Both the position numbers and the translations under genes were made by a program. This document shows positions 7,688 through 49,230 of a DNA stretch of 64,000 bases, piece by piece; within the stretch, counting starts at the first letter, position 1; each line of letters begins with the position of its first letter. Origin of the DNA: Kineosporiaceae bacterium SCSIO 59966 (GTDB taxonomy: Bacteria > Actinomycetota > Actinomycetes > Actinomycetales > SCSIO-59966); assembly GCA_020881835.1 (NCBI GenBank), contig CP052876.1:1116001-1180000 (forward strand), given 5' to 3'. The notes under the pieces were generated by a model. That model was not told the DNA's origin. It did no database searches and saw only the letters and a program-made list of their open reading frames with translations.

Positions 7688-7760
7688 GGCCGGGCGCCGC
7701 CGTCCCGTACCCGACCAGCCGAGACACCCCCGTTCGTGATCTGCCGGAAATCCCCTCTCG

Positions 7761-7901
7761 GTGATCATGCAGTCCCGCCACCCACCGGCCACCGTCCGGC
7801 TCACAGAGTGCTGGGTTGGTGGCGCGACACGCCGGCCAGGCTGTGCCGAGCGCAGCATTCTGTGGTCGAGGCGCGGCAGGGTGGCGGGACTGCATGATCA
7901 C
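7761..7901. repeat. Interspersed palindromic repeat, copy A
   Basis: This sits between the convergent parE and parC genes. The ends are perfect inverted 23-mers: 7761-7783 (begins GTGATCATGCAGTCCCGCCA) and 7879-7901 (its exact reverse complement). Inside is a hairpin core whose outer arms are CACAGAGTGCTG (7802-7813) and CAGCATTCTGTG (7853-7864). The flanks extend the symmetry (CCCCTCTCG on the left, CGGAGGGG on the right). A partial motif (TGATCACCGAGGGG) follows at about 7919-7932, overlapping the end of parC. It shares its termini and core with copies at 18.2 and 48.8 kb. Confidence 0.9.
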
Positions 7902-7921
7902 GGAGGGGGTTGTGGGGCTGA

Positions 7922-18160: not shown

Positions 18161-18405
18161 GGGTGGCGGGATTGCATGAACGCCTCATGGCCGCTGGCGG
18201 CCACCCCGAGAGATGAAAACAGGCCGTGGTGGCCATGGCAGCCCACGTCGGGTCAGGCGCCTCGGCCACAGAATGCTGCGTTCGGCGCATCTTGGCCGGC
18301 GTGTCGCGCCAGCAACCCAGCATTCTGGGATCGGGCGGTGGGGCTGGGTGGCGGGACTGCATGATCACGAGTGGGTCGTGCGGGGTGGCGGGACTGCATG
18401 ATCAC
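18161..18405. repeat. Interspersed palindromic repeat, copy B
   Basis: This fills the gap between the convergent M20 peptidase and nitroreductase genes. It starts with a variant terminus at 18161-18188 (GGGTGGCGGGATTGCATGAA, then CGCCTC). An extra module of about 85 bp follows to about 18263. The hairpin core has arms CACAGAATGCTG (18267-18278) and CAGCATTCTG (18318-18327). Two direct copies of the standard 23-mer then follow at 18346-18368 and 18383-18405. A partial motif TGATCACGGAGGGGG (from 18424) overlaps the end of the nitroreductase gene. The extra module recurs inverted in copy C. Confidence 0.9.
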
Positions 18406-18426
18406 GGAGGGGGGGTTTTCGACTGA

Positions 18427-36003: not shown

Positions 36004-36012
36004 CCGCCCGAT

Positions 36013-36068
36013 CTCTGGAGGCTTTCCGGGGTCTCGAGGCGCGTTGAGACCCCGAAAAGCCTCCAGAG
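36013..36068 (+). terminator. Long hairpin terminator after the methyltransferase gene
   Basis: Arms 36013-36035 and 36046-36068 are 23 bp each and pair with a single G:U, around a 10-nt loop. The arms begin CTCTGGAGGC and end GCCTCCAGAG. It lies 9 bp after the stop. It should end the kimA-methyltransferase transcript before the acnA promoter. Confidence 0.85.
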
Positions 36069-36122
36069 GACGCCGCGGACGCCGGGGGAGGGGCGTGACA
36101 GTCGGCGGGGGACGTGATTCAA

Positions 36123-48758: not shown

Positions 48759-48818
48759 CGCATTGACGGCCCCGGGCCACCGCTTTGCCTCAGTGATTCG
48801 TCGACCGCCCCCTTTTTC

Positions 48819-49230
48819 GTGATCATGCAGTTCCGCCACCCCGCACGACCCACCCGTGATCATGCAGTCCCGCCACCCCCGTTACGCGTGATCCGTCCGG
48901 CCCCCGTCCGTGATCATGCAGTCCCGCCACCCACCGGCCACCGTCGGCTCGCAGGATGCTGGCTTGGTGGCGGGACACGCCGGCCAAGCTGCGCCAAACG
49001 CAGCATTCTGTGGTGGAGGCGCCCGACCCGACGTGGGCTGCCATGGCCACCAAGGCCTGCTTTCGTCTTTCGGGGCGGCCGCGAGCGGCCGTGAGGCGTT
49101 CATGCAATGCCGCCACCCCGGTCCGCAGAATGCCTGGGTTCGTGGCGCGCCACGCGGGACCAGCTGGGCCGAGTCCAGCACTGTGTGGGCGCGTGGGGGC
49201 GCTTGCGGGGTGGCGGGATTGCATGATCAC
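48819..49230. repeat. Interspersed palindromic repeat, copy C (compound)
   Basis: This is the largest copy, between convergent dxs and the hypothetical at 49252. Three left-type 23-mers occur at 48819-48841 (one mismatch), 48856-48878 and 48910-48932. A first hairpin core spans about 48950-49014 (CAGGATGCTG ... CAGCATTCTG). The extra module follows, inverted relative to copy B, to a variant terminus at 49091-49119. A second degenerate core follows at about 49123-49190 (GCAGAATGCCTG ... CAGCACTGTG). The closing inverted 23-mer is at 49208-49230. The whole looks like two elements fused in opposite orientations. Confidence 0.9.

What the first reader, a model, noticed from the sequence alone, without database searches (positions are those of the whole stretch)
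18161..18263. Modular structure: an extra ~85-bp block is shared and inverted between copies B and C
Copy B has a block from about 18181 to 18263 between a variant terminus (…GCATGAACGCCTC) and the core. The same block occurs in copy C in reverse orientation (about 49014-49098), joined to a first core on one side and a variant terminus on the other. Copy A lacks it. Modules that are gained, lost and flipped suggest recombination or mobilisation rather than static drift.
Basis: seen in the sequence. Interest (0 to 1): 0.6.

Follow-up and report, generated by a model that had tools for sequence, protein, structure and literature searches.

The report
Repeats paired with their own nucleases
The shared block is one module of hairpin-like repeats scattered after genes in an actinobacterium; the repeat families in these elements each match the DNA flanking a different copy of one DNA-cutting enzyme family, which points to a little-known way for repeats to spread.

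Summary
The 181-nt match between copies B and C is real, but the block is not flipped on its own. In all 19 block copies found in 962 kb, it lies on the 3' side of the core in the core's orientation; B and C are whole units in opposite orientation. Many copies keep only its start; copy A has none. The units are composites of REP-like families sitting after stop codons: 25-fold denser between convergent than divergent genes. RAYT transposase is absent. Instead, the 23-mer and the core each flank, as inverted repeats, a different paralogue of one family: AbiEi-like helix plus Vsr-like DUF559/MTES_1575 nuclease. A third palindrome, one copy in this window, flanks a third paralogue. Of 273 evenly sampled genes, only these three have such flanks. 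The same architecture, with changing repeat dialects, recurs across the order and in named Tsukamurella and Arthrobacter. Sister genomes show elements present or absent, one element inverted, and one nuclease cassette inverted between its repeats. Best reading: REP-like elements serviced by a nuclease instead of a RAYT. The association is strong; cutting and mobilisation are inferred. My searches found no description of it.

The parts
7760..7782 (-). copy A: 23-mer (family 1), 1 mismatch
7797..7865 (+). copy A: core hairpin (family 2), no block
   Evidence: G000 1123797-1123865; block absent
7880..7902 (+). copy A: 23-mer, exact, inverted to the first
18162..18184 (+). copy B: variant 23-mer that ends the block
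   Evidence: 3 mismatches
18163..18255 (-). copy B: block, full length (model 1-93)
   Evidence: G000 1134163-1134255
18266..18334 (-). copy B: core hairpin (family 2)
18347..18369 (+). copy B: 23-mer, exact
18384..18406 (+). copy B: second tandem 23-mer, exact, 37 nt on
36009..36075 (.). solo family-3 palindrome, a few nt after a stop codon; same family flanks nuclease N3
48818..48840 (-). copy C: 23-mer, 1 mismatch
48855..48877 (-). copy C: 23-mer, exact
48909..48931 (-). copy C: 23-mer, exact
48945..49013 (+). copy C: first core hairpin
49025..49116 (+). copy C: block (model 2-93)
49095..49117 (-). copy C: variant 23-mer that ends the block
   Evidence: 4 mismatches
49119..49188 (+). copy C: second, diverged core
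   Evidence: 44.8 bits
49209..49231 (+). copy C: 23-mer, exact

Best explanation
The block is the 3' part of a composite, non-autonomous REP-like element. The composite joins two palindromic repeat families: the 23-mer (family 1) and the core hairpin (family 2); the block is an extension of the core that ends in a 23-mer variant and is often truncated. Each family has its own cognate enzyme in the same chromosome: N1 (G000:C1:2095740-2096681) for the 23-mer and N2 (about 1248513-1249481) for the core. A third palindrome family, one copy in this window, pairs with N3 (about 551834-552841). N1-N3 are paralogues with an AbiEi-like winged-helix N-terminus and a Vsr-like (DUF559/MTES_1575) nuclease domain. 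Shown: gene-repeat pairing, dialects, dispersal, placement after genes, presence/absence and inversion in sister genomes. Inferred: the N-terminal part reads the dialect; the nuclease nicks or cuts at or near the repeat, probably in hairpin or cruciform form; host repair or template switching then copies, tandemly duplicates, truncates or inverts the stretch between repeats. The repeats survive mostly after stop codons, where they may also help end or protect transcripts.
For: (1) Of 273 genes of 700-1300 nt in 41 stretches (40 evenly spaced 20-kb stretches plus the window; 864 kb), only 3 have flanking inverted repeats scoring >=16, and all 3 are family members: N1 with the 23-mer, N2 with the core, N3 with a third palindrome (Fisher p 3e-7). 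(2) Other loci: 25 of 210 genes score >=16, all family members (25 rows, 21 distinct genes). (3) Close orthologues: 20 of 23 score >=16; two of the three misses rise to 36 and 33 with other gene starts. (4) Dialects follow the gene: three G015 paralogues and four G006 paralogues each have different repeats on both sides. (5) A dialect read from the G100a gene's flanks was then found 44 times in G100 and 8 in G006, and 0 times in the 7 genomes searched from other genera. (6) Close orthologue present in 14 of 20 motif-rich genomes and 2 of 30 others, p 3.5e-6. (7) Named relatives: 4 of 5 flanked, 10 neighbour genes score <=11; the Arthrobacter repeat has 28 places in its record, the Tsukamurella one 20 places in 8 records. 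(8) Sister genomes: nuclease cassette inverted between its repeats, an element interior inverted, an empty site after a stop codon. (9) No Y1 transposase in G000. (10) Conserved E204, D237, E248-x-D250 and weak Vsr-family matches at that stretch.
Against: No cleavage or movement has been observed. Six of 20 motif-rich genomes (G066, G032, G120, G134, G176, G170) lack a close orthologue; loss or another enzyme must be assumed. Three further G000 paralogues tested have no clear flanking repeat (scores 12, 9, 14), and a seventh match was not tested. Distant paralogues: only 12 of 19 score >=16; in a phylum sample only 6 of 30, two of them already counted. One dialect (G032) was not dispersed: 3 places, all at the gene. 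The core, though independent at N2, is mostly joined to 23-mers (60 of 67), so which enzyme moves the composite is open. The block has no enzyme of its own found. Thresholds (IR >=16, E <1e-38) were set after seeing the data. The family identity by Pfam is weak for N2 and none for N3.
Confidence: 0.64

Rival explanations
1. The repeats are host functional elements, chiefly bidirectional terminators or 3'-end protectors, kept by selection; the nuclease is a resident of such sites or a protein that merely binds them.
For: 23-mers per kb of intergenic DNA: 3.45 convergent, 0.80 and 1.59 codirectional, 0.14 divergent. C-rich strand precedes the motif in the sense of the gene. Copy A's unit folds strongly, z -7.5. 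A symmetric pair of changes between sister genomes keeps one palindrome.
Against: Patchy within families and genera, dialects differ per paralogue in one genome, elements absent or inverted between sister genomes, and inverted flanks are confined to one gene family. A terminator needs no shared 12-mer across families nor its own nuclease.
Confidence: 0.17
2. The nuclease family is a selfish or defence gene (AbiEi-like regulator fused to a nuclease); the flanking repeats are its operators or decoy sites that restrain it, and dispersal is a by-product.
For: N-terminal half matches AbiEi models in PADLOC and Pfam AbiEi_1/AbiEi_4. Repeats lie on both sides of the gene, some within 30 nt of it.
Against: No partner toxin gene seen by eye next to N1-N3 in the gene calls; operators would not need copies after the stop codon, nor hundreds of copies after other genes.
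Confidence: 0.12
3. Classical REP/REPIN elements moved by a RAYT (Y1 transposase).
For: Same look: short palindromic dispersed repeats, inverted pairs, 3' of genes.
Against: PF01797 absent from 19 of the 20 motif-rich genomes, G000 among them; 2 of 50 genomes have it, while 5 of 14 control genomes ring.
Confidence: 0.02
4. The IS110/IS1111-type element spreads the repeats.
For: 7 copies in G000, inserted at CCCYTTC-GTGATCATGC (7 of 7 left junctions; right junction independently in 6).
Against: 7 copies against 270 exact 23-mers; cores, arrays and family 3 have nothing of the IS ends; such IS are known to target REPs (PMC1525189, start of abstract seen).
Confidence: 0.02
5. Static drift: an old tandem or segmental repeat family decaying, with no active process.
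For: 10 of 67 cores keep only the start of the block.
Against: Near-exact 23-mers next to diverged spacers; presence/absence and inversions between genomes about 93% alike.
Confidence: 0.03

Closest known systems
REP/REPIN elements with RAYT (TnpA-REP)
   Same: Short palindromic repeats in high copy, inverted pairs, mostly 3' of genes, and a gene flanked by inverted copies of the cognate repeat.
   Different: No Y1/HuH enzyme; the flanked gene is a DUF559/Vsr-like nuclease with an AbiEi-like N-terminus; units here are longer and composite.
CGTC-tagged REPs (Di Nocera 2013, PMC3733652, passages read)
   Same: REP families reported to lack a dedicated transposase.
   Different: Reported for five other phyla; no nuclease partner described in the passages read; tag and sequence differ.
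BIMEs of enterobacteria (recalled)
   Same: Mosaic of several repeat motifs in one intergenic cluster.
   Different: Here two of the motifs each pair with a separate nuclease paralogue.
IS110/IS1111 targeting of REPs with bridge/seekRNA (PMC11208160, PMC11187229, passages read)
   Same: An IS110-type element here inserts into the 23-mer.
   Different: It is a user of the repeat, not its source.
Vsr mismatch endonuclease / DUF559 proteins
   Same: Likely fold and active-site pattern of the nuclease half.
   Different: Vsr is a repair nickase with no dispersed cognate repeats (recalled).
AbiE type IV toxin-antitoxin (AbiEi)
   Same: N-terminal half resembles AbiEi.
   Different: No AbiEii partner seen; nuclease domain fused; repeats on both sides.
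DNA uptake sequences (recalled)
   Same: Dispersed short motif, inverted pairs after genes.
   Different: Patchy within genera, paralogue-specific dialects, nuclease gene flanked.

Membership tests
REP/RAYT (REPIN) | Dispersed short palindromic repeats, inverted pairs, extragenic | tested here: met
REP/RAYT (REPIN) | Y1 (IS200/IS605-like) RAYT in the genome | tested here: not met
   0 matches in G000
REP/RAYT (REPIN) | GTAG or CGTC tag at one end | not tested
   not scored; family 1 begins CGTGATCATG (sequence)
REP/RAYT (REPIN) | Enzyme gene flanked by inverted cognate repeats | tested here: met
   met with a nuclease, not a RAYT:
DUF559/Vsr-like endonuclease family | Profile match | tested here: inconclusive
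   N1: MTES_1575 E 2.5e-07 but 31.1 bits under cut-off 38.2; N2: DUF559 E 0.0017 under cut-off; N3 none; T. tyrosinosolvens relative over the DUF559 cut-off
DUF559/Vsr-like endonuclease family | Conserved acidic active-site pattern | tested here: met
   E204, D237 invariant, E248 and D250 nearly so in 20 sequences
DUF559/Vsr-like endonuclease family | Vsr-like fold | tested here: inconclusive
   best PDB matches 3hrl E 0.0027, Vsr E 0.4; fold not predicted because the tool's text admits only other sources
AbiE toxin-antitoxin | AbiEii nucleotidyltransferase partner next to it | tested here: inconclusive
   neighbours of N1-N3 seen look like housekeeping genes by eye; no family search was run on them
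MITE of a DDE transposon | Target-site duplication | tested here: inconclusive
   one empty site right after a stop codon, no clear duplication; too few sites
IS110/IS1111 (noticed element) | DEDD_Tnp_IS110 + Transposase_20, long 3' non-coding end | tested here: met

The most novel reading that the evidence does not exclude
A second, RAYT-independent class of repeat-spreading systems in bacteria: a large actinobacterial family of winged-helix/Vsr-like nucleases, each paralogue reading its own palindromic repeat dialect, nicking it and thereby copying, stacking and inverting it and its own gene, so that a genome such as this one carries several nuclease-repeat pairs at once, which can fuse into composite units like B and C.
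Probability: 0.5. Interest if true: 0.9.

Novelty: new variant of a known kind. Interest (0 to 1): 0.8.

Why it matters
Dispersed palindromic repeats without a RAYT, such as the CGTC REPs, have had no known enzyme. A family of uncharacterised nucleases, each with its own repeat dialect, would supply one and would explain composite, flipping and tandem units as found here. It gives a testable partner gene for hundreds of repeats per genome, and a set of natural protein-DNA specificity pairs (several paralogues per genome) from which recognition rules could be read. It would also give a role to DUF559-type genes, which recur in many Actinomycetota (70 of 149 genomes have a family member).

Tried and rejected
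Rfam on the window: no match at gathering scores. RAYT: rejected. IS110 as mobiliser: rejected, it is a target user. Independent block flipping: rejected. Exact 23-mer elsewhere: only one other genome, MAG Actinomycetales BWSM_131 (2 of 119 same-order genomes counting the own one); 0 in viral contigs. The one same-order genome with it, G015, has a looser dialect, 57 matches at <=3 mismatches. Covariation of the core: weak, 1 of 19 pairs with a two-sided change, so the hairpin rests on single-sequence folding and symmetry, not on covariation. Phage records: no nuclease match. PADLOC: only the AbiEi half. G032 dialect: not dispersed. Nonomuraea relative: no flanking repeat. Literature: searches in an open-licence library found no account, in the listings, of DUF559/AbiEi nuclease genes flanked by dispersed repeats; most subscription journals and all bioRxiv preprints are not held, so this is not proof. 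The gene caller is a home-made codon-usage one and its starts are rough. The first gene-context run had an orientation slip in my coordinate frame, found and mended; later counts use the mended frame.

Rows dropped or choices made: genes of 700-1300 nt only in the G000 control; in the 50-genome comparison G200 (34 motifs, same as G170) was placed among the 30 'others' and has no close orthologue. One search used letter shuffles (20 per locus) as null.

Full report
What was checked. The window is G000:C1:1116001-1180000 of a complete 3.1-Mb genome, about 73% G+C, with no relatives of its own family among the 119 genomes searched. The 181-nt inverted match between B and C is there and has 52 matches in the genome. 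I read the genome from 40 evenly spaced 20-kb stretches, the window, and loci around matches: 962 kb in all.

Anatomy. Three modules recur. The 23-mer: 142 exact and 66 one-mismatch copies among 225 hits with up to 4 mismatches in the covered sequence, in clusters where copies reading CGTGATC stand left and their inverted copies right of a core, often in tandem with a spacer that is the same within a locus but differs between loci. The core: 67 distinct copies, a hairpin CAGAATGCTG...CAGCATTCTG. The block: 19 copies, always 3' of a core and on its strand. The 23-mer lies 5' of the core in one orientation in 93 of 93 cases, 3' in the opposite one in 25 of 27. Of 67 cores 17 carry a full block, 10 its start only, 40 neither; copy A is among the last. 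Seven cores have no 23-mer within 80 nt, so the core is a repeat of its own. This corrects the finding: B and C differ by orientation of the whole unit and by C's extra diverged core, not by a flipped block.

Placement. In the unbiased 864 kb, 99 of 104 23-mers fall in gaps between called genes: 33 in 9.6 kb of convergent gaps, 61 in 52.2 kb of codirectional gaps, 5 in 35.9 kb of divergent gaps; by locus 11, 26 and 3. The motif often starts within tens of bases of a stop codon and in six of 71 measured cases supplies the TGA itself. G022 shows the same, without divergent cases (0 of 42); G066 is weaker, with 2 of 35 divergent and convergent no denser than codirectional (these regions were chosen around hits).

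The motif beyond this genome. A shorter pattern, SGTGATCWTGNA, has 418 matches here and is patchy among 396 genomes of the order: 428 in G106, 388 in G064, 256 in G015, but about 5-20 in most; reversed control near 0. In the other rich genomes sampled, the 12-mer CGTGATCATGCA or a close variant is joined to a genome-specific palindrome. PF01797 is absent from 19 of the 20 motif-rich genomes searched, G000 among them.

The partner. Looking for genes between inverted 23-mers gave one at 2095740-2096681: AbiEi_1 and an MTES_1575 nuclease match. Close orthologues (45-59% identical for most, E below 1e-38; cut set afterwards at a gap in the list) occur in 14 of 20 motif-rich genomes and 2 of 30 others. 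Their flanks carry the motif inward-facing on both sides in many. A motif-free test, the best ungapped match between the left 300 nt and the reverse complement of the right 300 nt, gave >=16 for 20 of 23 close orthologues and, unexpectedly, for 12 of 19 distant paralogues, with different repeats. In G000 the paralogue N2 is flanked by inverted copies of the core, and N3 by a third palindrome with five further copies in the covered sequence, one of them in this window at about 36009-36075. As a control, only those three of 273 G000 genes reach 16, and in other loci 25 of 210 genes do, all of the family. Three other G000 paralogues do not (scores 12, 9, 14); a seventh match was not tested.

Dialects. 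Three paralogues in G015 and four in G006 each have their own repeat on both sides. As a prediction, the dialect at the G100a gene (ACGATCAAGSAAGT) was searched and found 44 times in G100, often as inverted pairs about 36 nt apart, 8 in G006, 3 in G086, 2 in G114 and 0 in nine other genomes, seven of them of other genera. A second prediction failed: the G032 flank repeat occurs only at its gene. In named records, Tsukamurella tyrosinosolvens (three genes) and Arthrobacter sp. ERGS1:01 have flanked DUF559-type genes, Nonomuraea has not; the flank repeats recur at 28 places in the Arthrobacter record and 20 places in 8 Tsukamurella records. Across the phylum 6 of 30 best matches reach 16, two of them counted before, so the pairing is strongest in this order and may have shorter repeats or be absent elsewhere.

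Dynamics. G106 and G064 align over about 143 kb at about 93%. Their nuclease gene with its inner flanks is inverted between the two motif copies. Of four shared palindromic elements compared, one is inverted (85% identical inverted, 53% direct) and three are not. One element in G106 is missing in G064, where the sequence runs on from the gene's stop codon; others differ at 93-94 kb and 140 kb; one pair keeps its palindrome through matched changes on both arms.

Mechanism. From the protein, the C-terminal half has the conserved E, D, E-x-D-G pattern with a following H and its profile touches Vsr-family structures weakly; the N-terminal half is AbiEi-like. I infer sequence reading by the N-terminal half and nicking by the C-terminal half, followed by host repair that copies, stacks, trims or inverts. 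None of these steps is shown. A host role in ending or guarding transcripts may coexist.

Known or new. The layout is that of REP-RAYT loci, but the defining enzyme is absent and another stands in its place, so this works like a REP system without being a RAYT one. CGTC REPs were said to lack a dedicated transposase (PMC3733652, passages). IS110-type elements using REPs as targets are known (listing; passages), which covers the IS110 copies here. Full-text searches in the library showed no description of the nuclease-repeat pairing in their listings, with the library's limits.

Noticed in passing
G000:C1:1395587-1396843, 2793751-2795007 and five more (L102-L108): Seven near-identical IS110/IS1111-type elements, all on the + strand, inserted at CCCYTTC-GTGATCATGC of the 23-mer. 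The long 3' non-coding end holds GATGATCACC, complementary to most of the target's GGTGATCAT, a likely guide RNA segment.
   Followed up: partly
window 36009-36075: A third palindrome family, a few nt after a stop codon; the same palindrome flanks nuclease N3 elsewhere in the genome.
   Followed up: yes
G106 and G064, L262-L279: Nuclease cassette and one palindromic element inverted between sister species; an inversion bounded by short inverted repeats.
   Followed up: partly
G066, G032, G120, G134, G176, G170: Genomes with 34-165 GTGATCWTG motifs but no close orthologue of N1; their enzyme, if any, is unknown.
   Followed up: no
G000, G072, G006, G100 (L212, L214, L215, L216): The N1 gene sits between valS-like and clpX-like genes (named by eye) in several families, so this pairing may be old and vertically kept.
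   Followed up: no
six 23-mers of 71 measured in G000: The TGA inside CGTGATCA serves as the stop codon of the gene before it.
   Followed up: no
G432, G456, G478, G531 (L287-L290): Genomes of one genus with 7-15 copies of the nuclease family and only short (9-13) flank matches such as CCGAGACTGCGCACAG; possibly shorter dialects.
   Followed up: no
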